Assembly: GCA_022478985.1 (NCBI GenBank)
Contig: JAKSZP010006603.1
Span: 124,001-188,000 of the forward strand
Direction of reading: 5' to 3'
Source: Massospora cicadina
Lineage: Eukaryota > Entomophthoromycota > Entomophthoromycetes > Entomophthorales > Entomophthoraceae
DNA length: 64,000 nt
The notes under the pieces were generated by a model, which worked only from the letters and a program-made list of their open reading frames with translations, was not told the origin of the DNA and did not search any database. Of this stretch, positions 12,983-61,207 are shown piece after piece (positions within the stretch are counted from its first letter, which is position 1; each line of letters opens with the position of its first letter). The position numbers were made by a program, and so were the translations under genes.

Positions 12983-13025
12983 TGTAAGTCTTGGGGAGTG
13001 TCCTTTGGCTCTTGATCAGGCCATC

Positions 13026-13692
13026 TTTCCATTCCCAAATAAAAAGACACCAAAGAGGATGGCGGTACCCCTCATCACCCAGAGTGATCTCACTCACGTA
13101 GTTGATAAATGATGGGTGACAGCCTGTCCGCTTTGGGTCCCACCTCCAATTCCCTCACTCACCTCAGCAGAACTGTTGCGGGGAATTAGTGAAATCTGTA
13201 CTGAGATTATCAAACTGAAATCGGTTGAATCTAATTAGGGTGGCAATCTGTTTGATGGCTGGAATTCGATTGGCTGTAAAAGCATAAAAAATGAGATATT
13301 GTCCAAATTGCCTGACAGTTCTAATTCAACTCTTAAACCAGTAGAACAAATATTGGGCGCCATCGATGAGGGTTCAAAGCTTTCTGATAGTAATTTGGGC
13401 GTTGCACCTGATGTGCTGCTTTTGACTGAACAAATGGTTAAATGACTGAGTGTGGGTGGGTTGGTTGCCCCAAACCTGTTCCCAACAAAATGGTCACATC
13501 CTTATATGAGATAGCCTTGGGGGATTCCCGTCAGTCATCAGGCCAAATGCCATTGTGCTAACCGTCAGAAATGTAGTCAAGAATTGGTCCAGACGTTTGA
13601 GGTCAAACCGAAAGAGACTCAGCCTGCCACCAAATTTTGCAATGTCAGTTTCCAGAGAATAAACCCCCCACTTCCGATCAAATTTGCTGGTT
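13026..13692 (+). pseudogene. LTR-resident conserved ORF, family A (A1 5' LTR)
   Basis: One reading frame runs from about 40 nt inside the LTR for about 220 codons, broken by a few stops (TGA 13110s, TAG 13230s and later). Blocks in order: FPFPNKKTPKRMAVPLITQ, WVTA, PPPIPSLTSAELLRGIS, EICTEIIKLKS, then after a variable middle GIPVSHQAKCHCANRQK and VQTFEV. The same blocks in the same order occur in the other A LTRs, where they differ largely by synonymous or conservative changes. The likely start is the Met of MAVPL. No known domain is recognised; the Cys/His pair near the C-terminus may bind metal. It sits entirely inside an LTR, so each element would carry two copies. Confidence 0.65.
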
Positions 13693-13863
13693 AGGTCAAA
13701 TTTGTGGATCCTGCCCATGCCTTGTCACTACCCAATTGACCACTATTTAATCAGTTGCATGGCACTGAGAAAATTGTTGGTAAATTTTCTTACTTTCTTT
13801 CCCAAATAAAAAATTTTATTAAAAACCACAAATTTTTTAGTTTTCTTTCTGACCACATCCCAG

Positions 13864-14103
13864 ATGGCATTCTCCTGGTGGTCTGCCACTCCGCACTCTG
13901 GGTGGGCCTTACCAATCCTCTTGGTTACCATAGTTCCCTCCATTGCTGATTGGTTTCAACAAGTCCGATATTTTTGGCTCTACAACCCTGTTCTCATGAC
14001 CATCTGGCAGCAATATACAGGGATCTTTATGGCCCTATATTCGCCTACTACAATAGAAAATCCGCCTCTCTACCACCCCCAAAGAAATAGCCCTAACAAC
14101 TAA
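13864..14103 (+). other. Short hydrophobic frame in the 3' half of the A1 LTR
   Basis: A 79-codon frame from ATG 13864 (MAFSWWSATPHSGWALPILLV), present again in the 3' LTR at 19701-19940. The start is also recognisable in the solo LTR A3 on the minus strand near 57120 (MAFPWWPISPYTG, ALPVLLVT). A second hydrophobic stretch (VGILLTLSF, about 14180) and the LTR-end block HSDWQ..LNFFCHFHD recur in A3 and A4. It could be a second conserved LTR frame or simply conserved LTR DNA. The evidence is weaker than for the upstream frame. Confidence 0.3.
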
Positions 14104-14355
14104 GAATCTCGTGGAGACTATCACAGTAGTTCCCCCCTGTTACTAGAAACCCTAGGTTTGGAGTATATTCAGTGTGGTTTGCTGTCGGGATACTCCTAAC
14201 CCTGTCATTTCACCACCATTATGTGGTATCATATTTCCCGGCTCCATATCAATTCATACAGTTGGCAATGCCTCTGGCATTATGGCTTGCTTTCTGGATG
14301 CTCACGCATTCTGACTGGCAGTCCAGTCTAAACTTCTTCTGCCATTTCCATGACA

Positions 14356-15420
14356 TAATCAACCAACCATTACTTCCAGTCACTTCCGCCTTGATTTTTG
14401 AATTGGGCGCCGCAGTGAACTCTCTACCAGATGAACGTGCAATCAGTTGTATGTTGTTTGTTGCTTATATGGTCATTTTCTGACTTCAGGAGAAGCATCT
14501 GCTCTATTTCAGGAGATCTTATTCAAGCCACCCAAGATGTGAAGATCGCATCTCCTCCTATTTCCTCTGGTCTGGAAAACAAATCAAGTATCTCTTCCCA
14601 AGAGATCGCCAATCAGGTTCTCGATGCACTCATCAAAGTACAAATGTGCACAACAATTGCACTCAATAATGCTTCTGCGATATTGCAGGCCCAATAAGGT
14701 CTTGCATTGCTAGATGCCGTGGATGGTGATGCCCATCGCTGGGTGAGAAGTTTTTGCGTTCTTCCACACAAAAAGGAGACCCTGCCTCCCTGATGGCTGT
14801 TGTCTCGGCCTCCTTAAGTCCCCTTATGTCCCAATCAGACTATTTATTTAAACTGCTCTTTTCCATGGCCAAAACCCCTAGTTTGGCTTCTTTGATTTCT
14901 ACCTTTTGTGAGTTGGCTCCCGCGTCAGGACTTTTTATCTACATGCTTCAGGCAGTCTTTAGAGCAAGTTTGGATTTGGTTTCTGCTCACCATGTGGTTT
15001 GGTCTACCACCCAAGGATCAATAGATCAAATAGGTGTCACTGCAACTACTATCAAAGCTTTGCCTCGCCACGTTTCCTCATATCAGAAAGGAAATTTTAT
15101 GATAGGATTCCCTAACAAAGACGTAGACGATATAACTGACACCAAAATAGTAGTGGATGTGGGCTCCAACCCTGTTGGAACCCCTGAGTCTGAGTTAGCA
15201 TTCCCAGAGTTAACTATTAATGATTCTATTCAAGCCCAGATAAAGGAAATGATTCTCCCAGCCCTAGTACTTCCAATTTTCGCCCCAGCTAAGAACCCTG
15301 ACCCTGGTCCCAACCTACCTATTATTTCATCAGTCGCCCATGAGTTGGTTGAATCTCCCAATAAACAGAATTCCACTTATTATCTTATACCTATGAGAAT
15401 TAGTATTGGTTCCCATCATG
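14356..15420 (+). pseudogene. gag: A1 Gag region (decayed)
   Basis: Between the 5' LTR and protease are open pieces at 14431-14697 (SSQEIANQVLDALIKVQ) and 14754-15545, the latter running into protease. No zinc knuckle is visible. A capsid fold cannot be assigned by eye, so the Gag call rests on position. The second piece includes SPLMSQSDYLFKLLFSMAKT and, before protease, an acidic Pro-rich linker. A2 lacks most of this region (only about 430 bp before its protease). Confidence 0.45.
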
Positions 15421-15690
15421 TCTCCTTCAAAGCTCTGGTGGATACCAGAGCAGTTGGGAATCTCATGAGTGTTGAGTTGGCACAGCAATTAAAATTGGAT
15501 ATGGATGCGGGCTCCTCAGTAATGGTGGCCTCCTCCGCTTATTAGTCTTTATATATCATTTGCATTCGATACACTTCTCAATTCACCAATATAACTTCTG
15601 TGATCGTTTTTTGGCCATGCCAAACCTGGTGTTCCTGGTGATCTTGGGTGTGGGATGGTGGTACTGACAACATGTGAATATTCATTTATA
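15361..15690 (+). pseudogene. A1 retropepsin-like protease
   Basis: Reads IPMRISIGSHHVSFKALVDT, then RAVGNLMSVELAQQL, the classic start of a Ty3/gypsy protease. The catalytic motif is D-T-R instead of D-T/S-G. The identical D-T-R occurs in A2 (35734-36018), so the change predates the split of these copies. A TAG at 15543 ends the open frame; the later part (SVIVFWPCQTW) is readable in another frame. Confidence 0.75.
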
Positions 15691-15721
15691 ATCTAATACA
15701 AGGTCACATGCCAATGACAAT

Positions 15722-16570
15722 TTGGAGGGAGAGTTCCCTCTGATCAATACCCTCAAGAAAATTCAAGGAACCAGCTCTATCACCATTCTAGTTACTTCCG
15801 CAGGCATTCCGGCCGAGTTTCCCAAAAACTTAATGCCATATCCCATAATTTTTGACATGGAAAAGGCGGATCATTTGCCAAAACATACTAGATATGATTG
15901 TGGATTTTGGACAACCATGGAGCTGGTGAACATCAATTGCCCGTTTTATCCTCATACAGCGGAGGAAGAGGTTGCATTCAATACCTGGTTGGACGATATG
16001 TTAAAAAAAGGTTGGTTGTTTAAAGAAACTTCACCCATCGCCTCCCCTATTGTCTTTGTAAGAAAAGCGGATGGATTGCTCCGCCCTTGCGTGGATTATG
16101 GTCACCTGAACAAAATAACAGTTACAGATCCCTACACATTGCCCCTGGAGCAGACAATCAGTCAGGCAATTGCCAAATCCAGTGTGTTCTCAAAACTTGA
16201 CCTGGTGAACGCTTTTAACCATATTTGAGTAATGGAAGGACAAGAATGGCTGACCACAATTTGAACAAGGCGAGGCATTTTGTAATTCAGCGTAATGCCC
16301 TTTGGGTTGAAAAATGCTCCCGCTACATTCCAACAAATGATTGACAACGCATTAGGGGATCTCTGGTCTCCTGTGCTATTGCATATATTGATGATATTCT
16401 AGTCCATTCCCCAACTCCTGAACAACACACTATCAGCTTAGAAGCAGTGGTGGTTGCCTTGCATAAAGCAGGTCAGTTCCTCAAAGCTTCCAAGTGCGAG
16501 TTTTATAAGGAAGAGGCTACATTTCTCAGAAACCTGGTACTTAAAGAAGGTGTCGCCATCCCCCCAATAA
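15722..16570 (+). pseudogene. A1 reverse transcriptase
   Basis: A 168-codon open piece (15722-16228) carries the pre-RT linker and fingers: LPKHTRYDCGF, ELVNINCPFYPHTAEEE, SPIASPIVFVRKADGLLRP, CVDYGHLNKITVTDPY and motif A SVFSKLDLVNAFNHI. After a TGA, motif B reads VMPFGLKNAPATFQQMID (about 16300). After a shift, motif C is YIDDILVHSPTP (about 16385), so both catalytic Asp codons are intact. The thumb SKCEFYKEEATFL follows. A Tf1/sushi-type chromovirus RT broken by two stops and one shift. Confidence 0.85.
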
Positions 16571-16599
16571 ATTAGATGCAATCTGATAATGGCCAACCC

Positions 16600-17250
16600 C
16601 AACTATACAGAAGCAGCTTCGAAGTTTCTTGGGTACTATCATTTTTTTAAGAAAAATTTCCCCCGCACTCTCCCATTTGGCCACCCTGCTCCATCCCCTC
16701 ACTTAGAAAAACGTACCATTTTGTTGGACCCCCAAATACCAGTAGGTGTTCAAATTGATCAAGGAGGTGTTCATGTCTCCTCCCATTTTGAAACAGGCTG
16801 ATCCCACCAAACCATATATCATCACATGCAATGCTTCATTGGTAGCTGTGGGCGCAGTGCTGCTTCGGACCATGATGGTCTTGAACATCTGGTCGCTTAT
16901 TTTTCCCAAAAATCCACTGCTACAGAGCAGTCTTGGGCCATTTATGACAAGGAACTGGCTGCTGTTTCATGGGTATTAACTCATTGGTGGTACCTGTTGC
17001 AAGGTGCTCATCATGAGTTAACAGTTTTCACGGATCACCAGGCTCTCTTGTATTTCTGAAAACCCCAAAAATTGGCACACTGGAAAGCCTGAAACTATCA
17101 GGACCTGTGCACTTTTAACTTCAAATATGAATTTGTCAAAGGGGAACTAAATGTCCTTCCCAATTTTTTAAGCCAGAGTCCCGCTCACTGCCCCATGAAA
17201 TCTGAGGAGGTGGATCTCGTTACCATGATTCCTGCCACTCAAATTCTGTT
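16600..17250 (+). pseudogene. A1 RNase H
   Basis: After the linker (FLGYYHFFKKNFP) come KPYIITCNASLVAVGAVL, EHLVAYFSQKST, EQSWAIYDKELAAVSW and FTDHQALLYF. The first catalytic Asp (TCDAS in A2) is Asn here (GAT to AAT); the Glu of DKELAAV and the Asp of TDHQ are kept. Two overlapping frames (16746 and 16826) show a one-base shift. The domain runs to FVKGELNVLPNFLS. Confidence 0.8.
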
Positions 17251-17431
17251 GATTGTTCCCTCCATCGTTTCCTCCACCACATTGTCCCCCAACAACCTGT
17301 TATTGGCCCAGGTGTTAGCTGGTCAAATGGCCTGCTTGAAGGTATGGAGTTGATTGAGCACTTGACTCACTCAAGTCCCAAACACTCCCTATATTCTTTA
17401 GAAGAAGGGATCATTTACTTTTTTCCCATGT

Positions 17432-18156
17432 TTGGGTTCCCCCTCCTTCCGCTTGAACGTATTCCACACACACCATGATCCCCCCACAGTCAGACACCCC
17501 ATTAACAAGAAATTCATTGACCTGATCAAGCGAACTTTTAATTGGGCAGGACTGACCAAAGAGGTTCCGGCCTGGATTTCCAATTGTGTTACTTTTGCTA
17601 GGGCCAAGTTGAATCACTCCAGAAAAAATGGTCTTCTGCATTCTTTACAACAGGCGGAAGGTCCATGGACCTCAGTGTCCGTAGATTTCATTGTCAATCT
17701 TTTCTGTTCTAATGGGTTCACAGCGGTGATGGTGGTGGTAGATCGCTTTACAAAATTTTCCTTGTTTATCCCTTGTACTTCTGCAATTACATCGGAAGAA
17801 ACTGCCCATCTGTTTGTTTGACATGTGTTTTTGATGTTTGGCCTTCCCCAGGAAATCGTTAGTAACTGGGGTACTCAGTTTACCACCCAGTTTTGGAGTG
17901 AACTTTTTTGATCCTTAAGATAACCCCTTGTCAATCCATGGCATATCATCCTCAGTCCGACAGTCAAACTGAGCTTAACCAAGTTCTCAAACAGTATCTG
18001 CATTGCTATGCCGCAGCAGCGCAGGATACTTGGGCCAGTGACTTGCCTCTCACTCAATTTGCATACAATAATGGGATCCACACATCTACGGGGTTTTCAC
18101 CTTATGAAGCAATGTTGGGCTATAACCCATTGTTTTCAGTCAGGGCATGCTTGTAA
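17432..18156 (+). pseudogene. A1 integrase (zinc finger and catalytic core)
   Basis: The piece 17432-17821 begins with the zinc-binding region (HTHHDPPTVRHP, then CVTFARAK) and enters the core with SVDFIVNLFCSNGFTAV and VVVDRFTKFSLFIPC (first Asp). Around 17865 the usual SDRGTQF reads SNWGTQF: the second catalytic Asp is Asn (GAC to AAC) and Arg is Trp. The Glu survives in YHPQSDSQTELNQVL (17908-18156 frame). A TGA at 17819 and a shift at ~17905 break the gene. Confidence 0.85.
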
Positions 18157-18198
18157 CCAGAAGTTCAAGCTGCCGCGGAAAATGCTGCCCATATTCGA

Positions 18199-18805
18199 TT
18201 GACTCAAGCTTTAGTGCAGGAACACCTCATTAAAGCCATCGACGACTATAAGCAATTTGCAGATTGTATGCGCCTTCTGGGTCATGACTTTATGGTGGGA
18301 TCTTACATCATGCTTGATACTTGCCATTTGCGATTCCAAACCCCTTCCCACAAATTCGCCAGTAAGCATTCAGGTCATCACTTAATGGAGGAGGTATTGG
18401 GTAACAGGGCGTTCTGTTTGAAGCTTCCCGCGCATTGGAAGCAACACCCAGTTTTCCATCTATCCCAGCTGTCACCTTTCAAGGGTGTAATTCCCATGAA
18501 CCTGGAACCAATTATCATCAATAATGAGGAAGAAGCTGAGGTGGAGGCCATCCTGGCATCTCGGAAGTTGCAATGATCAGTCTAATATCTTGTGGCCTGG
18601 AAAGGATATCCAGCGTATGAAAAAAGTTGGGTCAAGGCGCGCAAATGCGCGTATTGCATGGCTCTGGTTTATGATTTCCACACATCTCACCCCGAGGCTC
18701 CCCACCTGCTCCAGAAGATCATGATGATTATGGATATCAAGTTACCCAAAGCGCATAAGAACGTGGCTCTGGTGCAGTTTCCTGGTGGGGGTGCCATTCC
18801 CTTGT
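18199..18805 (+). pseudogene. A1 integrase C-terminus with chromodomain
   Basis: One frame throughout, broken only by TGA 18574 and TAA 18583. The GPY/F-like part has HPVFHLSQLSPFKG. The chromodomain then reads EAEVEAILASRKLQ, stop-stop, YLVAWKGYPAYEKSWVKAR, C..CMALVYDFHTSHPEAP, with the aromatic and W-K-G-Y-P..E.SW residues of the fold. Chromodomains bind modified histones and direct chromoviruses to heterochromatin. The same domain is found in A2 (27106-27456). Confidence 0.85.
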
Positions 18806-18821
18806 AAAAGGAAAGGGTAAT

Positions 18822-20191
18822 GTAAGTCTCAGGGAGTATCCTTTGGCTCTCAATTGGGCTATCTTTCTGTTCCCAAATAAAAAGACACCAAAGAAGATGG
18901 CGGTAACCCTCATCACCCAGGGCAATCTCACTCACATAGTTGATGAGCAATGGGTGACAGCCCGTCCGCTTTAAGTCCCACCTCCAATTCCCTCACTCAC
19001 CTCAGCAGAACTGTTGCAGGGAATTAGTGAAATCTGTACTGAGATTATCAAACTGAAATCAGTCAGATCTAATTTGGGTGGCAATCTGGTTGATGGCTGG
19101 AATTCGAATGGCTGTAAAGGAATGAAGAATGAGATATTGGCTGGATCACCCAACAGTTCCAATTTGACTCCTAAACCAGTAGAACAGTAATTGGGTGCCA
19201 TTGATGAGGGTTCGAAGCTTTCTGATAGTAATTTTGGCGTTGCACCCAATGTGCTACTGTTGACTGAACAAACGGTTAAATGACTTAGCGCGGGTGGGTT
19301 GGTTGCCCCAAACCTGTTCTCAACCAAATGGTCACATCCCTATATGGGATAGCCTTGGGGTATTCCCGTCAGTCATCAGGCCAAATGCCATTGTGCTAAC
19401 GTCAGAAACATAGTCAAGCCTTGGTCCAGACATTTGAGGTCGAACTGACAGAGACTTGGCCCACCACCAAATTTTGTGATGTCAGTTTCCAGAGAATAAA
19501 CCCCCCACTTCTGACCAATTTTCTGGTTAGGTCAAATTTGTGGATCCTGCCCACGCCTTGTCACTACCCAATCGACCACTATCTAATCAGTTGCATGGCA
19601 CTGAGAAAATTGTTGGTCAATTTTCTTACTTTCTTTCCCAAATAAAAAATTTTATTAAAAACCACAAATTTTTTAGTTTTTCTTTCTGACCACATCCCAG
19701 ATGGCATTCTCCTGGTGGTCTGCCACTCTGCACTCTGGGTGGGCCTTACCAATCCTCTTGGTTACCATAGTTCCCTCCATTGCTGATTGGTTTCAACAAG
19801 TCCGATATTTTTGGCTCTACAACCCTGTTCTCATGACCTTCTGGCAGCAATATACAAGGATCTTTATGGCCTTATATTCGCCAACTACAAGAGAAAAACC
19901 GCCTCTCCACCACCCCCAAAGAAATAGCCCTAACAACTAAGAATCTCGTGGAGACTATCACAGTAGTTCCCCCTGTTACTAGAAACCCTAGGTTTGGAGT
20001 ATATTCAGTGTGGTTTGCTGTCGGGATACTCCTAACCCTGTCATTTCACCACCATTATGTGGTATCATATTTCCCGGCTCCATATAAATTCATATAGTTG
20101 GCAATGCCTCTGGCATTCTGGCTTGCTTTCTGGATGCTCACGCATTCTGATTGGCAGGCCGGTCTAAACTTCTTCTGCCGTTTCCATGACA
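18822..20191 (+). repeat. 3' LTR of A1
   Basis: 1,370 bp, TGTAAGTCTCAGG...CCATGACA, paired with 12983-14355. It is preceded by the purine tract and followed by CCCAG, which is also the TSD of the adjoining TRIM. Confidence 0.95.
18863..19645 (+). pseudogene. LTR-resident conserved ORF, family A (A1 3' LTR)
   Basis: The same frame as at 13026 with fewer changes in the middle: AELLQGISEICTEIIKLKSV, WNSNGCKGMKNEILAG, GSKLSDSNFGVAPNVLLLTE, then a shift and the A.CHCAN block. The continuation VQTFEVELTETWPTTKFC (19421-19645 open) leads to HYPIDHYLISCMALRKLL. Stops at TAA (~19190), TGA (~19280) and TAG (~19350). Comparing this copy with solo LTR A3 (57350-58010) codon by codon in the ISEICTEI block shows mostly third-position differences (ATT/ATC, AGT/AGC, TGT/TGC, AAA/AAG). 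Confidence 0.65.
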
Positions 20192-25955: not shown

Positions 25956-27105
25956 TGTCAGACAAACAGCAATTATCTTTAGATTGGTCTACTAGCCTGA
26001 GTGCTGATTCACACAAATGGCAAACCCAAATGCCAGCGGCACTATGCTGGTCTAACTTATATTACTAGGAATGAGTTTCACCATAAGCTTACATGAGCCA
26101 CAATCATGTATAAACACCTATCAACATACCAAATGAACATGGCCATAAACCCTGAGGGTTGTTGGAATACTGGTGGAAAGGGAGGTTTGGTTTTCAACAT
26201 AAAAACTGAAAATTGGGAAAAGGACTTTATGTAAAAGATAAAAGAAGTAATTTGACCATAACTTTCTCAGTGCAATACAACTGATTAGATAGTGTTCAAT
26301 TGGTAATATGTCAAAGCAGTGATTGGGTCCCTCAAATTCAACCTAACCTGGAAATTTTTTTGGGGAGGGGGTGAATAATTTCAATAGGAACTAACATTGA
26401 AGGATTTGGTGGCAGCCCGAGTTGCTAACAGTTTGACCTCAAATACCTGGACTGAAGCTAAACTGCGTTTTCATCAGTTGGCGTGATGGCATCTGGCCCA
26501 ATGAGCAATGGGAATCCCTAAGGCCACCCCACATATGGGAGGTCCCAAAATGGTTAGAAACGGGTTCAGGGTGCCCAACCTGCCCGTGCCCAGTCGCTGG
26601 GGTGTTCTTTTGGTCAAATGAGTTATGTCAGCCACAACTCCCAATTCATTGGATAGTGGTTTTGAATTGTCTACAATAGTTCCCAAAGATACCATCTGCA
26701 CATTGGGGATCATCCCCAATGATTTTGAGGGGTACTTGGCATTGACGATCATACTGATTTCTGTACCAAGATTGTCAGCTATACTGGCAAAAAATATATA
26801 CTTGTCCCTCTTTAATGATATGTTTTCTGATTGTCAGGCTTTATTTCCATCAGTTTTGGACCTTTTTACTTCAATTTGGTAATCATGGCGCAGTTTTCCT
26901 CAATTTGGCGGACAAGTTTAGCTGAGATAAGCATGTTTACTGGGAGAGGAATCTTAAGAGGGAGGGTTGTTACCCAGCGCATGTCTACCACATGAGCGAG
27001 GTTACCCTGGGTGATGAGGGGTACAGCTGCCCTCTTAGGACCTATCTTGTTTGGGAATGTAAAATCGCCCAATTTATACAAAGGGAACGTTCCCCTGGAC
27101 TTACA
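25956..27105 (-). repeat. 3' LTR of A2
   Basis: 1,150 bp; minus-strand start TGTAAGTCCAGGGGAACG at 27105. It is about 220 bp shorter than the A1 LTR because the hydrophobic part is reduced. Confidence 0.9.
26440..27081 (-). pseudogene. LTR-resident conserved ORF, family A (A2 3' LTR)
   Basis: Minus strand: KRAAVPLITQGNLAHVVD, WVTTLPLKIPLPV, SAKLVRQIEENCAMITKL (open 27081-26866); then after a broken middle an open 93-codon stretch (26752-26474) with SLGTIVDNSKPLSNELG, DITHLTKRTPQR, PPICGVALGIPIAHWA and RCHHAN followed by TGA. Compare A3, PLCGVSLGVPAARWA/KCCHAN: nearly the same protein with different codons. This copy gives the clearest view of the C-terminal block. Confidence 0.65.
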
Positions 27106-27729
27106 TTACCTTTTCCTTTTGCCAAAGGAAGGGCACCAACGCCAGAAAACTGCGTGAGGGCTATATTTTTGTGCACTTCGGTCAACTAGATCGCCATCAA
27201 GGTCACAACTTTTTTTTGGGGGGGGAGCTTCCAGATGGGACTCATGGAACGCCTCGACCAGTTCCATGCAATTTGTGCAATCATGAGCTTTGAACCAACT
27301 TTTCTCATAAGCTGGATAATCCTTCCATGCGATGAGATAATTAACTGACTGCCATGATTGGTGGGATGCTAAGATATATTCCACCTCAGCTTCTTCTGCA
27401 TCCTCAATCACTATTGGCTCCAGATTGTCGAGAACAGTCCCCTTGAATGGGGACAACTGAGATATGTGGAAGATGGGGTGCTGTTTTCAATGAGCTGGCA
27501 GTTTTAAACGGAAAGCACCATTGCCCAAGACTTCCTCCACCAGGTGGGGACCTGAACGCTTGCTTGCAAACTTCCAGGAAGGTACCTGCATCTGCAAATG
27601 GTGCGTATCTAACATAACGTATGAGCCCACCACTACATCATGGCCAGGAAGCCGTTTTTGATCTGCAAACCGCTTATAGTCATTGATAACCTTTATGAGA
27701 TGCTCCCGCGCTAGGGACTGGGTAGACAA
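27106..27729 (-). pseudogene. A2 integrase C-terminus with chromodomain
   Basis: Minus-strand open pieces 27729-27487 (KRSGPHLVEEVLGNGAFRLK) and 27456-27106 (SPFKGTVLDNLEP, then the chromodomain VEYILASHQSW, NYLIAWKDYPAYEKSWFKA, CMELVEAFHESH). The chromodomain is uninterrupted here, unlike in A1. A one-stop break separates the two pieces. It ends at the 3' LTR with a basic GKRKR tail. Confidence 0.85.
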
Positions 27730-27849
27730 ATGTGCTCAACATGATCTACGGTAGCAGGGGTTTCTGGTTGCAGATAGGGACTAACTAAAATGAGGGATTA
27801 TACCCCAACGTTGTTTCATAGGGAGAAAACCTCATTGAGGCGTGAGTTC

Positions 27850-28560
27850 CATTATTATAGGCAAAGTGGGTGAGGGGAAGTTCATTGGCGCAGATATCAT
27901 GTGCGGCCTCCACATAGCAACGCAAATATTGTTCCAAATTTGGTTAACCCTCTCATTTTGTCCGTTGGACTGGGGATGATATGCAGTGGAACGCAGGGGG
28001 TAATTTTCAAGATGGACAAAAGCTCATTCCAGAAAAGTGCTTTGAACTGGGGTCCACGGTCACTGATGATTTCCTGCAGGAGACCAAACATAGAGAACAC
28101 ATGGCTTACAAAGAGATGAGAAGCTTCTTCCAACGTAATTGTGGAAGAGCATGGAATAAATAAGGTATACTGAGTAAAACAATCAACCACCACCATCACC
28201 GCTGTAAATCTATTAGAACAGGGAAGTTTGACAATAAAATCCATAGACACCGATGTCCATGGACCTCCGCCTGTTGTAAAGGGTGGAGAAGACCCTTCCT
28301 TTCTGATTTATCTGACTTGGCTCATGTGCAAGTAATACAATCGGCGATCCATGATGGTACCTCCTTTGATAAACCCGCCAAAATAAAAGTCCATTTGATC
28401 AACTTGGTACATTTCTTATTACCCAGATGGCCAATTGTGGGAGGGTCAAGATGCGCTCAAAACACCTCATTTCTGAAGAGAGGGGGACCCAAACCCGCGA
28501 CCCAGAAATAAATGAGACCCTCCACCAGGGAATACAGGGAATGTTTGAGAGTTAGAAGGG
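27850..28560 (-). pseudogene. A2 integrase core
   Basis: Minus strand: zinc region remnants near 28300-28560, then MSMDFIVKLPCSNRFTAV, VVVDCFTQYTLFIPC (Asp), IISDRGPQFKALFW (Asp) and, after a one-base shift near 27950, YHPQSNGQNERVNQ (Glu). All three catalytic acids are present, better preserved than in A1. The open core is 28250-27897. Confidence 0.85.
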
Positions 28561-28569
28561 ACAATTGGT

Positions 28570-29214: not shown

Positions 29215-29399
29215 TCTTATTACTGAGGTGGTGAAGCGGGGTGGCTAACTGGGAAAGGTCTGGGGAAAATTTCTTCAGGAAAATAATGGTCCCCAAGAAA
29301 ATTCTTAGTTGTTTTTGGGTTGTTGGATTCAGCCATTCACAGATGGCGTCCAGCTTGTTGGGAGGAATTGCATAACCATCTTTTAGGACCAGTTCCTGA

Positions 29400-34188: not shown

Positions 34189-34194
34189 CACACC

Positions 34195-36151: not shown

Positions 36152-37300
36152 GTCAGGAAAAAAGAAAGTTATTTTTAGAACAGCCTACAAGTCTGAGTGT
36201 AAAAGCACCCAAATGGTAAACCCAAATGCCAGTGGCACTGCTGCTGGTATGACGGTTATGGAACTAGGAAGGAGTTTCGCCAATAAGCTTACATGGGCCA
36301 TAAACTCATATAGACACCTAGCAGCATACCAGATAAACATGGCCATAAACCCCAAGGGCTGTTAGAATACCGGTGAAAAAAGGGCAGTTTGGTTTTCAAC
36401 ATAAAAACTGAACTTGAGAAAAGGGCTTTATTGGAAAGATAAAAGGAGAGAATTGACCACAATTTTATCAGTGCAATAAACTGATTACATAGTGTTGATT
36501 GGTAATGGGTCAAAGCAGGGTTTGGGTCCCTCAAATTTGACCTAATCCAGAGAATTTTTTGGGGGAGGGGGAAGATAATTTCAATTGATCTAACATCAAA
36601 GGATTTGGGGCAGGCTGAGTTGCTATTAGTTCAACCTCAAACGCCTGGACTGAGGCTCAACTGCATTTTCATTGGTTGGCGCAATGGCATCTGACCTTAT
36701 AAGCAATAGAAATTCCCCAAGGCCACCCCACATTTGGGTGGTCCCAATTGGTTGAAATGGGTTTGGGATGTCCAACCTGCCCATGCCGGTCACTGGGGCG
36801 TTTGTTCAGTCAAATGAGTTACATCAGCTGCAACTCCTGATTCATTGGATAGGGGTTTTGAATTGTCGGCGATAGTTCCTGAAGATATAATCCGAACATT
36901 GGGGATCATCCCAACGATTTCTGGGGTCTTGTCATTGATTATCGTACTTCTGGATGTGTCAAAACTGTCAGCAATTCCAGCCAATGATTCAATAATTGTC
37001 CCCCTTTGACAATATGTTTTCTGATCGTTGGGCTTTATTTCCAATAGTTTCAGACCTTTTTGACTTCAATTCGGTAATCTTGGTGCAGATTTCCTCAATT
37101 TGGCGAACAAGTTTGGCTGAGGTAAGCGCAGGTACTGGAAGACAAATCTTAAGAGGGAGGGATGTTACCCAGCGCTTGACTGCCATGTATGCTAGTCGCC
37201 CTGGGTGATGAGGAGTACAGCCGCCCTCTTAAGACCCTTATTGTTTGGGAATGGAAAAATCGCCTGATCTACGCAAAGGGGACGTTCCTCTGGACTTACA
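36152..37300 (-). repeat. 5' LTR of A2
   Basis: 1,149 bp, paired with 25956-27105. Minus-strand start TGTAAGTCCAGAGGAACG at 37300; it ends ...CTGAC at 36152, followed by the shared PBS region. Confidence 0.9.
36620..37255 (-). pseudogene. LTR-resident conserved ORF, family A (A2 5' LTR)
   Basis: Minus strand: WVTSLPLKICLPV, ALTSAKLVRQIEEICTKITE (open 37186-36989); then 37044-36790 with ESLAGIADSFDTSRS, IPNVRIISSGTIADNSKPL and DVTHLTEQTPQ; then GRLDIPNPF and PPKCGVALG before a shift spoils the CHHAN end; finally AFEVEL. The long middle stretch is the best preserved among the copies and shows what lies between the N-terminal and C-terminal blocks. Confidence 0.6.
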
Positions 37301-42205: not shown

Positions 42206-42257
42206 ATTTGGTGCTCACTACAGGGGCATGCCTGTGCACTAACCCGTAGTTATTAAC

Positions 42258-43813: not shown

Positions 43814-43945
43814 TTGATGAACTACAAAGTTCAGTCAGTCTTATCCAACCAAGAACTCATTAAGAATGACTACACCTGTCTGGTTGAATACCCCTTTTCC
43901 GCTTTGCCTTTACATTATGTCACCTCTGGGCGCAAAACTAAGAAG

Positions 43946-45157: not shown

Positions 45158-45166
45158 GATATACAG

Positions 45167-45718: not shown

Positions 45719-45816
45719 CTGCCAATCCTCCACTTGGATAATAGCGAGGCAGAAAGGTTGCATGATCTATTAATGCTTCTAATGAATGGGAGGATGAAGA
45801 TGATCCAGTTCAGAAG

Positions 45817-46931
45817 ATGTTAGCCCGCCACTCGTGCAACACCAAAATGGAAAATGGGAAGTTGTATAAGCAGGTGGGGGCGAAGTGGTTGCCTTACCTC
45901 CAGCCCTCAGAATGCGTACCTGCCATCCTTGAAGCTCACTCTATTTTAGGCCATGGAGGGGCAAAGAAAACTTATGAGTGGCTTAAGGATCGATACTATT
46001 GGGATGGAATGATGGACGCTATAGTTGATGTCTTGAAAGCCTGCCTTACGTGCAAGAAACAATCCGGTTTCAAAACTAGATACCATTATCAACCAACTAC
46101 CCCGCAACAACCTTTTCACACTATTATTTTGGATGTTGTAGGTCCCCTTCCACAGTCTACCAGTGGCAACCGTTTTATCCTAGTAGCCATCGACCACTTC
46201 ACTAAGTGGGTTGAAGCTGTGGCGCTTCCTGGATAAACAGTTAAGGCAACTGCCACTTCCATACACCAACACATTTTTTCTCGGCATGGCTGTCCCCAAG
46301 TACTACTCTGTGATAATGGCAAGAATTTTACCTCCAGAGTAGTCAAACTCCTGGCTACCTTCATGGGAGCCCAATAACTCTTTTCAGCTCTGTACAATCC
46401 ATCTACCAATGGGGCAGTGGAAAGAGGCAATGGAACCTTAGTTTCTATCCTCCGCAAAATGGCCTCTTCTGATCCACTTCACTGGGATCAATTCTTACCC
46501 AGTGCCCTTATGGCCTACTGGATTAGCTATCACTGGATTCTGAAATGTCCCCTTTCCGAGTTTTGTATGGCAGGGAACCAGGCATACCTGCCCTTCTGGC
46601 TAAAGGTGTCTTCTCTAAAGGAGAGGAGCCTAAGAAAGCCATGCAAAGGCTAGCTAACCAAATTATTTAACTCCAAGCTGAAGCTATGACCAACCTAGCA
46701 AAAGCAGTGACTAAAGAAGGGCAGGCTGCCAATGAGCTCCGCATCCCCCTTCCTACATTTCAAGTGGCTGATAAGGTGTTATACTACCATAACCGCATCA
46801 CCCCAAGAAGCGGTAAGCTTGGTTCAATTTGGGAGGGACCTTTCTCCATCAACTACAAAAGAGGCAATGAATACTCCATCAAATCATTAGCCACGGGAGT
46901 TACTATAAACTGGGACATGGCCATTTCCTAA
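45817..46931 (+). pseudogene. Element F integrase
   Basis: 45817-46236 open: zinc region LEAHSILGHGGAKKTYEWL, CLTCKKQ (HHCC complete), LDVVGPLPQSTSGNRFILVA, IDHFTKWVEAVALPG (Asp), TAA. Then VLLCDNGKNFTSRVVKLL (Asp), a TAA, and NGAVERGNGTLVSILRKM (Glu): all three catalytic acids are present. The C-terminal region 46686-46931 (FQVADKVLYYHNRITPRSGK, GSIWEGPFSINYKRG) resembles an SH3-like tail. No chromodomain. Confidence 0.86.
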
Positions 46932-46968
46932 GATCCTACACTTCTCCCAACATTCTTGAGAGGGGCAA

Positions 46969-47732
46969 TGTCAGATATTCTCCTTCTTGACTTCTGAGAA
47001 AGAATGTTGGAGTCCGATCTTTGACTAAAATTGTGACTATCAATGATATGAATACCAACGGCAAAAAGACCTTGGTGGATTCTTGGTGAATCCTATCCAT
47101 CAGAACAATACAATCTATACCCAAAATTAGCATAATATGGTAAGTACTGAAAATAGGATTGCTCCAACCTTTTGGCCAAATTTGAGGTGTTCAATATTGT
47201 GCGGGTCTGAACCCTCCCAAAGTGAGAAGATTTTGCCCATCAATGATTGGGTGCAAATTAGCCAATCATTACCACTCAGATCTGAACCCTCCCAAAGTGA
47301 GAAGATTTTACCCATCGATGATTTGTCATAAATTAACCAATCATTACCACTCAGATCTGAACCCTCCCAAAGTGAGAAGATTTTACCCACTGGTGATTGG
47401 ATACAATTTATCAAATCCTTACCACAAAGGTCAGTTTTGCTACAAAAATATTTATCCTCGATCTGATAGGCCAAAAGCCTATATTTCCTAATTTAGATGA
47501 CTCAGCTTTATATATTTTAGCCTCAAATGCCCATGATCTCAAAATTCAAACTAGTTTAAATAGGAACTACTAGTATCAAGAAAAGGGCCTTTCTCTAGTT
47601 TGCCTTAAAAATTAAAACTATAAAATAAAATCTTAGTTTTATTAAGAGTTTGTTATTTATTTTAAATATTCCATTGTGGAAATCCAGCAGCACATAGCAC
47701 CAGCGAGCATAGTTTCTTGCTGAATTTTGACA
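46969..47732 (+). repeat. 3' LTR of element F
   Basis: 764 bp, paired with 41445-42205; preceded by a purine tract and followed by the TSD TCTTG. Confidence 0.93.
47207..47431 (+). repeat. Three 75-bp tandem repeats in the F 3' LTR
   Basis: Copies begin CTGAACCCTCCCAAAGTGAG at 47207, 47282 and 47357, a period of exactly 75 bp. The same array is in the 5' LTR, so it was present in the inserted element. It lies in probable U3 and could be a promoter or enhancer array. Confidence 0.9.
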
Positions 47733-49217
47733 TCTTGGATGAATGCCTGACTTGTAAAAAACAATCCTGCTTCAAGGCTAAGTATCATTATCAACCTATG
47801 ACGCCGCAACGACCCTTCCAAACCATAAATTTGGATGTGGTAGGTCCTCTTCCTCATACCACAGGTGGAAATCGCTATATCTTAGTTGGTATTAATTATT
47901 TCACCAAATGGGTGAAGCTGTAACTCTCCCCACTCAGACTACTAAAGCCACGCCTACCTTCTTACACCAATACATTTTTACCTGGCATGGATATCCTCGG
48001 GTCCTCCTATATGATAATGGGAAAAATTCTACTTCCCAAGTGGTGAAGCTCCTTGCCACCTTTATGGGAGCGCAACAACTCTTCTTGGCCCTTATAACCC
48101 ATCCACAAATGGTGCTGTAGAAAGAGTTAATAGAACCCTGGTCTCCATACTCTGCAAAATGGCTAATTCAGACCCTCTCCACTAGGATCTTTATTTATCC
48201 AGTGCCCTCATGGCCTATCAAATGAGATATTATTGCATCCTAAAGATGTCCCCTTTCCATGTATTGTATGGCTGAGAACCTGGGTTACCAGATCTATTAG
48301 CAAAAAATATCTTCACTGACAGAATTGACCCAGAGAAATTATGAAAAGTTGGCTCAGCAAATCATCTAACTACAAGTGAAAGCTATGAATAACTTAGTCA
48401 AGATGGTCTCAAAGGAAGCTGAAGCAGTTAATGAGTTCCATATCCCTCCCCTTCCTTCCAAGTATCTGAAATGGCATTGTATTATCACAAATCACTCCTA
48501 GAAGTAAGAATCTCGGTTCTATTTGGGTTGGGCCATATTTTAGTAATGTACAAGCGAGGGGATGAGTCTCTATCAAATCCCTATCTTCTGGTTTTACCAA
48601 AATTGGATACATGGCCGCTTCCTACGGCCTTATTCTCCACCACAACATTCTTGAAGGGGGTGATGTCAGACATTTGCCCTCCAGGATCCAGTATAAGAAT
48701 GTTTTGGGGTAAAATTGGCTAAAAAGGGGAAATGTTGGACATACAAAAATCCCCAATAATAATGAGATTGATTTAACTTTAAATAATGATTTTGTTGGCC
48801 AAAAGGCCCTGGCTTATTCTCGGAGTAACCCTGTGAATCAGGGCAACACTATTATGACTACTAACTGGGCAAATAGTGCCAAGTTGGGAAGTCAAATTTC
48901 CCTGACTTCACAGTAAACCTGGGGAGTCCATCAGAGGTTTCTCCCTCAGTCACGACTAGTTCAAAGACAGCACCAAAGTGGAGACTGACCCCTCATTTAT
49001 AGACTTGGTGGGGGTCCCCCAGGGTGCAATAAATTTTTCTAAAGGGGATTAGCTGAAATTAGTTAAATTGTTACCCCACGGGTACATAGTGCCAAAGTCA
49101 ACTCCCCTTCAGTCATTCAGCCATGGTAAAGCAAGTTTTCTGAGCTTTAATAGCTAAAGCCCATATTACTCAATTTTGAAATACACAAGCCTTCAAAATG
49201 TTGAGCCTCAACATTTT

Positions 49218-56620: not shown

Positions 56621-56625
56621 TAATG

Positions 56626-58052
56626 TGTCATGGAAATGGCAGATGAAGTTTAGACCGGCCTGCCAGTCAGGATGCATGAGCACCCAAAAGCAAGCCATTA
56701 TTCCAGAGGCATTGCTGACTGAACGACTTTGTATGAAGCTGGGCATTGCAAAATGACAAATTGTTGGAGTAGGGCAACAGTGATTATGATCCCAATGACA
56801 AACCACAATGAGCCCATCCCAGAACCAGGGGGTCTTACTTCAGGGGGTGGAATCACAGAAATAGTTTCAATGAGTTCATTGGCAAACAGGGTTATTTTGA
56901 CTGGGGAGACAAGGAGACGGATTCTCACCAGCAATTGGTGGATATAAGGCCACAAGATTCCCTATTGATGTTGTCCGAGGTTCAAAAATAGCAGGGTTAA
57001 AGTGCCAGAAGTATCTGACTCGCTGAATTCAATCAATGACGGAGGGCCATAGTGACCAAGAGTACTGGTAGAGCGCATCCAGTATATGGACTGATGGGCC
57101 ACCAGGGAAATGCCATTGGGGATGTGGCCAGAAGAAATTAACACAATAAAGAAATTGATTGGGTTTTTGGCAAATTTTTATTGGAAAGGAAAGGAAGAAA
57201 ATCGACCAACAATTTTCTTAGTGCAAAGCAACTGATTAAATAGTGGTCAATTGGGATAGTGACAAGCCAGGATCAAGACCTAAATTTTGACCTAACTGGC
57301 GAATTATTCAGGAATGGGCGGATTAGTTACCCTGGAAATGACATTGCAAAATTTAGTGGTGGGCCGAGTTTCTGTCAGTTTGACCTCGTTTATCTGGACT
57401 GAGGCTCAGCTATGTTTCCAACAGTTGGCGTGACAGCATTTAGCCCAACGAGCGGCGGGAACCCCCAAAGACACCCCACATAGGGGCAGACCCATTTGAT
57501 TGGGAATGGGTTTGGGATGCTCAACCCCCATGCTCAGACACTGGGCCATTTGTTTGGTCAGTGGCATTGCAGCAGGCGCAACGCCCAAATTTTCAGCAGG
57601 GGACTTCAAACCCTTGTCAATGGTGTCCGATGCTGTTGCCTGCCCATTGAGGATGATCCCCAACGATTTCTGGGAGGGAGGTAATTTTTCCAATTGTCAT
57701 GTTAACCGAATTGAAACTGTTTGGAATTCTGGCCAATAAATCAGCCTTCATACCTTTTCAACCATTTGAGATCCAAACTTTGGGCTGATTGCCACTCAAA
57801 TTAGTTCTGATTGATTTCATCTTGACGATCTCAGTGCAGATTTCGCTGATTTTTCATAACAGTTCTGCCAAGGTGAGCATGGGTACTGGGGGTGGGATCC
57901 GCAGTGGAAGAGCTGTTACCCAGCACTTGTCTACCATGTGAGCGAGATCGCCCTGAGTAACAAGGGATACCGCCATCCTCTTTTGTGCCTTCTTGCTTGG
58001 GAATGGGAAAATGGCCCGATCAACACCCAGAGGATGTTCCCCAGGACTTGCA
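56626..58052 (-). repeat. Family-A solo LTR (A3)
   Basis: 1,427 bp with a perfect TSD TAATG (56621-56625 and 58053-58057). Minus-strand start TGCAAGTCCTGGGG and end CCATGACA. No interior, so it arose by LTR-LTR recombination. It is diverged from the A1 and A2 LTRs. Confidence 0.93.
57350..58010 (-). pseudogene. LTR-resident conserved ORF, family A (solo LTR A3)
   Basis: Minus strand: FPFPSKKAQKRMAVSLVTQG, DLAHMVDKCWVTALPLRIPP, MLTLAELL, a TGA, KISEICTEIVKMKSIRTNLS, another TGA, KGMKADLLARIPNSF. In a shifted frame, the 96-codon open stretch 57693-57406 follows with GLKSPAENLGVAPAAMPLTK, LPLCGVSLGVPAARWA and KCCHANCWK. Then VQINEVKLTETRPTTKFCN. It shares all blocks with A1 and A2 despite low DNA identity. 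Codon differences in these blocks are mostly silent or conservative. Confidence 0.68.
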
Positions 58053-58057
58053 TAATG

Positions 58058-59874
58058 ACAACCTTAACCTTAGTGTCCAAATCTTTCAGCATTTAGATGA
58101 ACTTACTAATCAATTAAATTGGAACGTGTTGGCCATATGATATCAAGCCATGGAAAATTAAAGAGTCACCAATGTATGGACTTAAAGGTTGACTCACCTC
58201 AGGTAGGAGGCATATGTAGCTGTGTCACTCCAGGATCATAACTTTTTAGTCTGAGGCAGTTGAAGCCTTCGATCAATACACCCAACACAAAATGAGGGCA
58301 GATGCACAGCACTTAGGAAGCAACACTAAGGACAACAACCACTCCCTTCCAAGTTGCAACAAATTAAAATCAACATGCGGCCATGCAACAGATATTGAAG
58401 GATTGAGAGGCTTAGTCAAGATTCTGCAACTTGTCAAGAAAAACCTTCTCCAGTCAAATAACAACCTATGGTGTTATATCTGAAAGCTTTTACCCCAGAA
58501 ACTACACATAAAAGTTAATTGGAGGAACTGCACAATAGTGTGTGCAACATGTATAGACAATTTTACAGTTTTGAAACAGTTCAATCTGCAATGTCATCAT
58601 GAAAAAGGCGATTGTACAACTTGGAACGGAAAAATGAAGGTGAGATACAGGATGGAAGATGTTGGTGCCCTCCTTTAACTCTGTGTCATGGCTCCATGAC
58701 ATAATTGAGGGCACATACTGTAATGATAAAGCTGGTCAGGAGGCCAAAAGCTTAAGTTGGCAGGCCTCCCTGACCTGAAACATACCCTGGACCAACGCTG
58801 GATACAGGTGAGATATGACCAGATTGGTTCTGGGAAATGCGTGATGCTCAGTCTGGCATTACAGACAGGGTGTTAAAACGCACAAACAACATTCTTAACT
58901 CTGACAGTTTGCTATGGTTGCTCAAGGAAAGGGGTTCAAAACCAGTTCCATTTTTAATATTACCAAATTGGGTCAAACACAATTACAATCTATATCTTAA
59001 CTTCGGTCAATTTTGAGCTATAGGACCCTGGCCAATGGTAGTGTGCACCTATTAGTGCACTTGGCTTAGCACCACTTCTGCCAATTGACAACTCACCTCC
59101 CATTGTTTAAGTATGTTTCCATGAGACTGACTTTTCTCATTGGTCAATTTCTAAATAATAAATTCCCTGTTAGTTTATGTTTTTAATACAGTTCTTGGGT
59201 AAACCTGTGCACTGACCTCCTTGAAAAGATCTTTAACATCGTTAATCTTTTTTATTTTAACAAAAATGTCTACCATATCTGGTGCATGTCTGGGCCGCCC
59301 TGGTATTCTCCAAATTTCAGTACCCAAGCAATCAAGCACAGATCTCCAGTTGATTATGGACTCCCCTTTGTGTTCCAACCAAGTTTGTTGTTTATTTGAT
59401 ATCAACTAATATAATCCGCATTGTACACCCATGCTCTGGGTCCATTTGGCTCTGGAACCCTCCGAGGTGATCTGTTTACAACCTTGCTAATGACTAGTTC
59501 CCTGGAGTGTGGCTGTGCATCCTTCACCACCTATTGGGATTGAGAGAGTTACAGACTCTCTCCTGACTTTAATTGACCAACCTCTTTATTTTACATGACT
59601 AGAATTATCTGTGTGGGACCTTTAATCAGTGTAAATTGGGTTCACAGCTCTTTGTCATGGCGTTGTGGGGCTCACCACCGTTTTCTCATCTGGCTGGTGG
59701 TTGGTGCATCTTGGCTTTATTCTTGCTACCTCCAAGTGGGAAGTGCCCGCCCTTCTTGCTTGTACCTGGTGGATTCAGAAGCTTTTCAATCTAGGTGCTA
59801 TAATTCCCCAACTTCCCCCAAAATTAATAAAAACAATTTAACTAAGTGATTTTTATTGTAACCACGTTTGAATG
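58058..59874. other. Unassigned interval between the solo LTRs
   Basis: No gene or repeat recognised. Small frames only (longest 84 codons, 59595-59849). It was joined to 61213 onward before LTR A4 was inserted, so it may be upstream sequence of element G. Confidence 0.45.
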
Positions 59875-59879
59875 GTCCA

Positions 59880-61207
59880 TGTCATGATTGTGGCAAAGTA
59901 AGTTTAGTATGACCTGCCAGTATGGATGACGAAGCATCAAAATGGCAAGCCCAAATTCAAGAGGCACTTCTGCTTGAACGTCATTATTTTGAGCGGAAAA
60001 AAGTTCTCCATTAAGCGCCAATAGATCCTAAATGTGAATATAAGATCTGAAATGAACCAGGCTATCATGGCCTCAGGGCCTATGGGTTTGGGTGTTGGGA
60101 TAAGTGAGATCAGGTGGGTAGTTTGAATTTTGGCATAATGAAAATAATGAAATAGGAAACATGAATTAACTTAATTTAAATTTAGAAAAACAATCATCAA
60201 TTTTCTCAGTGTTTTACGACAGTTTAAATAGACAAATTTCTTTTAAGGTATAGCTTAGTAAAGCTTATTATTGGGGCCTTTGAGAATTCTCCTAACCCAG
60301 AGAACTTCAAGTGGGGAGAAAACGAATTTATTTTGAACCAACTTTGGAGTCGTTGGGGGTGGGCTGAGGTGCTGTCAGTTCAACCTCAGACACCCAAATA
60401 GTGGTTACACTGATTTCTGACAGTTAGCATGACAGCACATTGCCTGATGGGTAATGGGAACCTCCAAGGCCACCTCACATAGGGGTGGTTCAAAGAGGTC
60501 AGGAATGGGAGCAGGATATTCAACCCACCCACACACAGTCACTTTTATATCCATTCAGCCAAGCGAGATGCAATAAACAAAAATCATAATTTTTGAGGGG
60601 AGGATTCTGGGCTAGCGACAACATTTGAATAAGGAGGAACATCTCCTTTGGGCTTTGTTCCCAATGTTAATAAGGGAGTTTTAAATCAGCAACAACATTT
60701 CCCGATGATCCAATACCATTGGTGAGTTTAAATGAGGATTCGTCACTGGACACATCCTTATTAAGAGGTTTACACCCATCATGTTTTGTCCCCAATGTTT
60801 TTGAAGTAGGTTTCAGACTGACAGCAACATTTCCCAATGGCATGATGCCATTGGCGAGTTTTGCCAAAAATATGACACTTGATTACTTATTTATTGAGTT
60901 CATGAGCCCGACAGGCTTTGTTGTCAAGATTTTATGGCTTCTAGATATTATTTTCAAGGGCTTAAGGTCATCAACTTTATAAGATCCTTTTGGCCCATGG
61001 GGGTGGCGGCTTCCAATTATTTATGCGTAAATTCCCTTTAATTTTACAGACTAATTTGGTGGTAATTGTGAGAACAGGTGGTGGGATTTTCAAGGGGAGG
61101 GTTGTTACCAATTGCTCATCTATCACATGGGTTAGTACGCCCTGTGAGACAAGAGGGACAGCTGCCTTTTTAGGTCCATTTTTTGTTGGGAACAGGAACA
61201 CCACCCA
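59880..61207 (-). repeat. Family-A solo LTR (A4)
   Basis: 1,328 bp with a perfect TSD GTCCA (59875-59879 and 61208-61212). The minus-strand start is TGGGTGGTGTTCC, corresponding to a point about 25 nt inside the other A LTRs; the end is ATGACA. The most diverged A LTR in the window. Confidence 0.88.
60380..61205 (-). pseudogene. LTR-resident conserved ORF, family A (solo LTR A4)
   Basis: Minus strand: FLFPTKNGPKKAAVPLVSQG, LTHVIDEQLVTTLPLKIPPP (open from outside the LTR to 60977). A diverged middle follows (60867-60667: ANGIMPLGNVAVSLKP, KHDGCKPLNKD). At about 60420-60530 comes PAPIPDLFEPPLCEVALEV, then PITHQAMCCHANCQK and a stop, then VSEVELT. The PLC.VAL.VP....A.CCHANC block matches A3 closely, with CAT/CAC and GCT/GCC silent differences. 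Confidence 0.65.

What the first reader, a model, noticed from the sequence alone, without database searches (positions are those of the whole stretch)
12983..61207. A conserved protein gene lives inside the LTRs of the A family
Seven A-type LTR copies (1-424, 12983, 18822, 25956, 36152, 56626, 59880) carry the same sense-strand frame. Shared blocks: K(K/R)..K(R/K).AV.L..QG.L.H..D...VT..PL.IP.P; AELL..ISEICTEI.K.KS.R.NL; LT..T; P.CGV.LG.P....A.C.(H/C)AN; (F/N)EV.LT.T.P. In A1 versus A3 the ISEICTEI block differs mainly at third bases (ATT/ATC, AGT/AGC, TGT/TGC, AAA/AAG), and substitutions elsewhere are conservative (I/V, L/M, S/T, K/R). Two copies are solo LTRs with perfect TSDs, so these really are LTRs and not interior gag. 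Known LTR-resident genes (such as sag in the MMTV LTR) are rare. I know of none in a chromovirus, though I cannot search. It may explain why these LTRs are 1.15-1.4 kb.
Basis: partly seen in the sequence, partly recalled or inferred. Interest (0 to 1): 0.88.

Follow-up and report, generated by a model that had tools for sequence, protein, structure and literature searches.

The report
Polyprotein tail encoded inside the LTR
The conserved reading frame inside these retrotransposon end repeats is real for about its first 78 codons, but it looks like the tail of the element's own polyprotein running into the end repeat rather than a separate gene, a layout already known in plant relatives.

Summary
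About the first 235 nt of the A LTR (78 codons) evolve as protein: between four subfamilies (27, 30, 18, 17 copies) fixed differences peak at third codon positions in all six pairs (e.g. 7/5/28), and dN/dS is 0.19-0.25 in the four pairs where it can be computed. Beyond nt 235 this signal is lost. At 3' LTRs the integrase frame runs through the polypurine tract into the LTR frame in 23 of 31 junctions of three subfamilies, but 1 of 4 in the fourth. Three copies keep one unbroken ORF across the junction; one such ORF has Pfam SH3_Tf2-1 and Chromo matches. So it is most likely the C-terminal tail of Pol, in U3. The gag-pro-RT ORF is also open from inside U5 of the 5' LTR, its start codon unproven. 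Chromovirus polyproteins entering the 3' LTR are published: a new variant of a known kind. No homologue of the tail was found.

The parts
12983..14355 (+). A1: 5' LTR of the A1-A2 element (TGTAAG...CATGACA); subfamily g1
   Evidence: 92% identical to 18821-20191; flanks CCCGG/CCCAG, 4 of 5
18821..20191 (+). A2: 3' LTR of the same element, the kind of copy in which the Pol tail would be read; in this one pol is out of frame with the LTR
12984..13217 (+). LTR nt 2-235 of A1: the codon-constrained Pol-tail frame (stop at codon 43 in this copy)
18822..19055 (+). Same segment in the 3' LTR A2 (stop at codon 51 in this copy)
18577..18730 (+). Chromodomain region of pol (YLVAWKGYPAYEKSWVK...), upstream of the 3' LTR; coordinates approximate
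   Evidence: Pfam Chromo in the equivalent ORF of another copy
18806..18820 (+). Polypurine tract AAAAGGAAAGGGTAA, which also encodes residues of the Pol tail; a 1-nt length difference here breaks the frame in this copy
13443..13788 (+). LTR ~nt 460-805: conserved as DNA without a clear codon pattern; TATTTAA at LTR nt 762
13774..13784 (+). Inferred start of R (LTR ~nt 792): in two other copies the complement of the sequence just inside the LTR lies at this place, 28-32 nt after the TATA start
14170..14355 (+). LTR end (U5): part of the gag-pro-RT open frame, probably its N-terminal part; start codon not fixed
14356..14371 (+). Primer-binding region TAATCAACCAACCATT, not of the usual TGG... 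type (recalled); possible self-primer
36152..37300 (-). A4: 5' LTR of the minus-strand A3-A4 element (subfamily g4), frame shifted in this copy
25956..27105 (-). A3: 3' LTR of the same element (element TSD AGGGG); the last pol residues are in frame with the LTR across the junction, then the frame is shifted
56626..58052 (-). A5: solo LTR, TSD TAATG (subfamily g5); stop at codon 66
59880..61241 (-). A6: solo LTR (subfamily g6); corrected end 61241; frame stop-free over the first 77 codons
1..424 (-). A0: LTR fragment cut by the window edge

Best explanation
The LTR frame is the C-terminal tail of the element's Pol (integrase) protein. The coding frame passes the integrase SH3 domain and chromodomain, reads through the polypurine tract and enters U3 of the 3' LTR, where about 78 further codons are held by purifying selection; the frame often stays open longer without clear constraint. 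The 5' LTR carries the same letters only because reverse transcription rebuilds both LTRs from one template; there they lie upstream of the predicted transcription start (TATTTAA at LTR nt 762, R from ~nt 792) and would not be translated. The other end of the LTR (U5, last ~180-200 nt) is open in frame with gag-pro-RT and probably encodes the start of Gag. Shown: the frame, the selection, the in-frame junctions in three subfamilies, the gag-pro-RT frame being open from inside U5. Inferred: translation, transcription start, where Gag starts, and that the tail helps the integrase choose or bind its target, as proposed for other chromovirus C termini.
For: LTR nt 0-235: fixed differences at codon positions 1/2/3 in six subfamily pairs: 8/4/21, 12/10/32, 22/9/31, 8/7/25, 13/6/31, 7/5/28; with CpG-type columns masked 4/4/14, 9/8/19, 14/6/19, 4/6/13, 9/4/21, 5/3/20 (p 0.022 to 2.5e-6; pairs not independent). 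dN/dS 0.22, 0.19, 0.25, 0.20 in four pairs, undefined in two because dS saturates; wrong frames 0.59-1.38. Junctions (copies whose upstream flank passed a polypurine filter): pol tail and LTR in one frame in 10 of 13 (g1), 9 of 11 (g5) and 4 of 7 (g4); 20 of these 31 also without a stop near the junction (23 of 31 against 1/3, p 3.9e-6, copies related). Unbroken ORFs across the junction: 338 aa (L004), 312 aa (L005, the same copy as in L009) and 277 aa (L015), each with 149 codons in the LTR; the 312-aa one has SH3_Tf2-1 at 4-49 and Chromo at 69-117. A 700-aa ORF of L009 is open from inside the 5' LTR and holds a protease match and the start of RT. In the unrelated B family of the window pol stops before its 3' LTR.
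Against: In subfamily g6 only 1 of 4 junctions is in frame (L085, with a stop); in the other 3 pol would end at the LTR edge. The window's own 3' LTR A2 is out of frame with pol. 63 of 92 copies have a stop within the first 77 codons. The first 60 nt alone show no significant masked third-position excess in any pair, and the pol linker 180-60 nt before the LTR shows none between g1 and g5 (5/3/7, p 0.37). No RNA or protein evidence. For Gag: over the last 100 nt of the LTR third-position counts are highest in all six pairs but p<0.05 in one only, unmasked, with 9 of 17 g6 copies used; no periodicity at nt 1090-1230; no start codon is established, and Gag could instead begin at a Met after the LTR. 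The primer complement is significant at the expected place in 2 of 11 5' LTRs.
Confidence: 0.83

Rival explanations
1. A separate U3 gene, like sag of MMTV or nef of lentiviruses (recalled), with its own start or a spliced message.
For: It lies in U3; the constraint is on codons; in g6 three of four junctions are out of frame with pol while g6 still takes part in the third-position pattern.
Against: No conserved ATG before or in the constrained block; in-frame junction in 23 of 31 g1, g5 and g4 cases; unbroken pol-to-LTR ORFs in three copies.
Confidence: 0.1
2. Chance open frame plus DNA-level conservation of promoter and integrase-binding sites.
For: Probably true for the later part: LTR nt 460-805 is conserved without a clear codon pattern. 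CpG-type change is heavy (290 of 1373 columns masked). An antisense frame is also nearly stop-free at nt 180-480 in g1.
Against: For nt 0-235 the third-position excess survives CpG masking in all six pairs, and wrong frames give dN/dS 0.59-1.38.
Confidence: 0.03
3. Captured host gene fragment carried as a passenger in the LTR.
For: The searches found no related tail in other elements.
Against: They found none in any other protein either, nor in Pfam (apart from weak matches) or the PDB; a passenger would not be expected to stay under selection across four subfamilies. The host genome itself was not searched for a gene homologue.
Confidence: 0.03

Closest known systems
CRM group A plant centromeric chromoviruses (PMC3059260: passages and section 7 seen)
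   Different: CRM group A has a CR motif in place of a chromodomain, LTR ends TGATG/CATCA and a tRNA-Met primer site; here a Pfam chromodomain lies upstream of the polypurine tract, LTR ends differ, and the gag frame is open from inside the LTR.
Bingo chromoviruses of Beta vulgaris (PMC3605345: passages seen)
   Same: In Bingo1-4 and 7 the gag-pol ORF extends into the 3' LTR; the paper says that outside the CRM clade the chromodomain is upstream of the PPT, as here.
   Different: Length and conservation of the Bingo extension were not compared here.
Ty1 of yeast (PMC3522557: passages seen)
   Different: Copia-type element (recalled); [quoted passage not shown]
Tf1/sushi and Tcn1-like chromoviruses (PMC6317226: passages seen)
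   Same: Predicted self-priming of reverse transcription; the integrase C terminus here matches Pfam SH3_Tf2-1.
   Different: No tree was built here, so membership is open.
sag (MMTV) and nef (lentiviruses), recalled only
   Same: Protein coding in U3, read in the 3' LTR.
   Different: Those are separate accessory genes; here the frame is fused to pol.

Membership tests
Chromovirus (Ty3/gypsy with chromodomain) | Chromodomain at the integrase C terminus | tested here: met
   PF00385 E 2e-10 in the L009 ORF; 5 of 28 rows of alignment A3, most of which hold only the LTR part
Chromovirus (Ty3/gypsy with chromodomain) | Order protease-RT-RNase H-integrase in one element | tested here: met
   Pfam matches in this order along L009; the integrase H2C2 match is below its cut-off
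CRM group A | Polyprotein extends into the 3' LTR | tested here: met
   In g1, g5 and g4; g6 1 of 4
CRM group A | LTR ends TGATG/CATCA | tested here: not met
   TGTAAG...CATGACA in most g1 and g5 copies; g4 ends mostly GCCTGACA
CRM group A | CR motif in place of a chromodomain | tested here: not met
   A Pfam chromodomain is present upstream of the PPT; the CR motif itself was not searched for
CRM group A | Primer site complementary to tRNA-Met | tested here: not met
   TAATCGACCAACC-type sequence follows the LTR; judged by eye against a recalled tRNA-Met primer sequence
Tf1/sushi-type self-priming elements | Primer site complementary to the 5' end of the element's own RNA | tested here: inconclusive
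   11- and 15-nt complements 28-32 nt after the TATA start in 2 of 11 5' LTRs; 7-nt matches near the equivalent place in 2 more; A1 has a 9-nt match elsewhere (nt 476, 8 of 200 shuffles)
sag/nef-like U3 accessory gene | Own start codon or own spliced message | tested here: inconclusive
   No conserved ATG; messages cannot be tested with these tools
Ty1-like gag start in the 5' LTR | Gag frame begins inside the LTR | tested here: inconclusive
   The 700-aa ORF of L009 is open from inside the LTR, and L010 and L011 show the same frame with lesions, but the start codon is not established and the codon test is weak

The most novel reading that the evidence does not exclude
One LTR encodes both ends of a single polyprotein, a previously undescribed ~78-residue integrase tail in U3 and the hydrophobic start of Gag in U5, with the promoter packed between them. 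The tail would be a second targeting or partner-binding module beyond the chromodomain, and because both LTRs are rebuilt from one template each cycle, exchanging an LTR between families would exchange the tail, the promoter and the Gag start together.
Probability: 0.28. Interest if true: 0.55.

Novelty: new variant of a known kind. Interest (0 to 1): 0.36.

Why it matters
Coding DNA in LTRs is easily masked as non-coding repeat. Here a simple test (frame of pol across the polypurine tract plus third-position change between subfamilies) turned a puzzling 'LTR gene' into a likely Pol tail and suggested that the interior understates the coding length at both ends. The tail is a candidate integration-targeting module without a detected relative. 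Against surprise: extension of a chromovirus polyprotein into the 3' LTR has been in print since at least 2011 (PMC3059260).

Tried and rejected
Homologues of the tail: none at E<=10 among 2321 candidates for alignment A1; the 312-aa ORF found one protein among 745 candidates, E 1.2e-4, 35% of the query covered, whose precomputed Pfam domains include Chromo. Pfam and PDB for the LTR part: nothing or E 0.79 and worse; of 28 rows two matched DUF4568 (best E 0.00094) and one Vg_Tdu (0.15), taken as chance. Structure: two AlphaFold runs, mean pLDDT 39.5 and 46.0, too poor for a fold search; both suggest a beta hairpin (AIF.F..KK..KR..VPL) and a later helix (ELL..ISEIC..I), that helix at about pLDDT 70-85 in its middle. 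Test within subfamily g1 only: weak. Separate gene with its own ATG: judged unlikely. The A6 end at 61207: rejected. Host: a 1.47-Gb assembly; a ribosomal-protein search meant to place it did not complete, so the host group is unknown. No tree of RT was built.
Full report
What was checked. The window is G000:C5696:124001-188000 of an unnamed 1.47-Gb assembly. In the window it is broken in A1, A2, A5 (stops at codons 43, 51, 66), A3 and A4 (shifts); A6 is stop-free over 77 codons. The A6 end was corrected from 61207 to 61241 from its relatives.

Collecting copies. Four answered searches of the host genome with window LTRs gave four subfamilies: g1 (A1/A2 type, 27 copies used: 25 distinct fetched copies plus A1 and A2), g5 (A5 type, 30 of the 40 listed matches, A5 itself included), g4 (A3/A4 type, 18: 16 fetched of 40 listed, plus A3 and A4) and g6 (A6 type, 17: 16 fetched of 41 listed, plus A6). 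The searches score only the best ~40 of 8039 to 18849 first-look candidates, so these are samples of the copies closest to the query.

Is the frame protein? In g1 and g5 the frame runs a median of 62 and 70.5 codons from the LTR start to the first stop, against 19 and 0, and 10 and 0, in the other two sense frames. Between subfamilies the first 235 nt show the signature of protein: fixed differences at positions 1/2/3 are 8/4/21 (g1-g5), 12/10/32 (g1-g4), 22/9/31 (g1-g6), 8/7/25 (g5-g4), 13/6/31 (g5-g6) and 7/5/28 (g4-g6). Masking columns that look like CpG decay leaves 4/4/14, 9/8/19, 14/6/19, 4/6/13, 9/4/21 and 5/3/20, p 0.0031, 0.012, 0.0051, 0.022, 5.6e-5 and 2.5e-6. The pairs share copies and are not independent. 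Nt 60-150 is strongest (masked p 0.0026-0.075); nt 0-60 alone is not significant when masked. dN/dS between copies of different subfamilies is 0.19-0.25 in four pairs and cannot be computed in two; the same DNA in wrong frames gives 0.59-1.38. Within subfamilies it rises to 0.42-0.59, nearer to the wrong frames (0.46-0.86), as expected for decay after insertion.

Where it ends. From nt 235 to 340 all six pairs lose the pattern (masked p 0.21-0.88). At nt 345-460 the pairs with g4 lean to third positions again (15/12/22 and 8/11/18, not tested), while g1-g5 does not (12/11/10). At 460-805 the LTR is conserved (10-24% fixed differences among g1, g5 and g4, against 26-51% at 230-460) without a clear codon pattern (g1-g5 tests).

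What is it part of? At 3' LTRs the residues before the LTR typically read AIKLPKAHKNVALVQFPGGGA.PLEKGKGN, the last ones from the polypurine tract, followed by VSLRECPLALDWAIFPFPNKK or similar from the LTR. The pol motif and the LTR frame are in one frame in 10 of 13 g1 junctions, 9 of 11 g5 and 4 of 7 g4, counting only copies whose upstream flank passed a polypurine filter; 20 of the 31 are also free of stops there. The window's A2 is not in frame and A3 is. In g6 it is 1 of 4, with a stop; the other three would end pol at the LTR edge. This speaks against a uniform rule and is unexplained. Three copies keep one ORF from the integrase across the junction, 338, 312 and 277 aa, each with 149 codons in the LTR; the 312-aa ORF has Pfam SH3_Tf2-1 and Chromo. 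As a control, pol DNA 480-330 nt before the LTR has 16 of 18 g1-g5 fixed differences at one codon position (numbered 1 in the frame counted back from the LTR of L034, a copy with a shift upstream; I take it as the third), the linker at 180-60 nt has none of this (5/3/7, p 0.37), and the last 60 nt have 0/0/3. The constrained codons are therefore most simply the C-terminal tail of Pol.

The other end. In L009 a 700-aa ORF is open from inside the 5' LTR (about 225 nt before its end), crosses the LTR end and primer region and contains a protease match (431-509) and the start of RT (646-700). L010 and L011 show the same frame with lesions, and g5 copies L044 and L052 give matching protein with lesions. 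Fixed differences near the LTR end favour third positions, 7/4/14 for g1-g5 over nt 1216-1372 (p 0.046; 7/3/12, p 0.05 masked), but not at 1090-1230 (p 0.26); over the last 100 nt third-position counts are highest in all six pairs, with p<0.05 in one. The start codon is not established. So one LTR probably encodes the tail of Pol in U3 and the head of Gag in U5, with the promoter between. In two of 11 5' LTRs the sequence just inside the LTR is complementary (11 and 15 nt; reached by 1 and 0 of 200 shuffles) to a site 28-32 nt after the start of the TATA, as expected if the element primes on its own RNA end; two others have a 7-nt match near that place, A1 a 9-nt match elsewhere, the rest nothing of note.

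What is known. [quoted passage not shown] PMC3605345 (passages) reports an ORF extension into the LTR in Bingo1-4 and 7. PMC3522557 (passages) says that the gag ORF of Ty1 begins in the 5' LTR. PMC6317226 (passages) describes self-priming in Tf1/sushi and, as a prediction, Tcn1 elements. In the listings of six text searches of the held library and in the passages seen of five papers I saw no element described with both overlaps; most subscription literature is not in that library.

Verdict. The function of the tail is open; by position, after the chromodomain, help in target choice is the likeliest guess, untested.

Noticed in passing
25956-37300 (-): The A3-A4 element is 11.3 kb, while two g4 pairs elsewhere have their LTR starts 4905 bp apart. 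The stretch 30423-35705, which matches 55383-50302 at 90-91% in opposite orientation and encodes an RT that I take for LINE-type, would account for the extra length as a nested insertion.
   Followed up: partly
41445-47738 (+): A second gypsy-like family (B) with LTRs 41445-42211 and 46969-47738 has a conventional layout: the pol frame stops before its 3' LTR and a gag-like frame follows its 5' LTR; it served as an in-window contrast.
   Followed up: partly
A LTR copies of g1 and g5: Heavy CG to TG/CA variation; 290 of 1373 LTR columns met the CpG-type mask. It explains stop codons such as a TGA at LTR codon 154 in most g1 copies.
   Followed up: partly
14170-14355 and equivalent U5 of g1 and g5 copies: The predicted start of Gag is strongly hydrophobic (SVWFAVGILLTLSF..., MPLAFWLAFWML), unusual for a Gag N terminus to my knowledge; its role is unknown.
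   Followed up: no
60977-61495 (-): A 172-aa open frame joins the A6 LTR frame to ~85 codons of flanking DNA; taken as coincidence because A6 is a solo LTR.
   Followed up: partly
LTR nt 240-420 of g1: The frame is nearly stop-free (0.2-0.9% of codons, against 2.8-19.9% in the other sense frames), but so is one antisense frame (0.2-0.9%). g1 and g5 differ here by a block of 17 residues that keeps the frame, yet codon-position constraint is absent at 235-340. Unexplained.
   Followed up: partly
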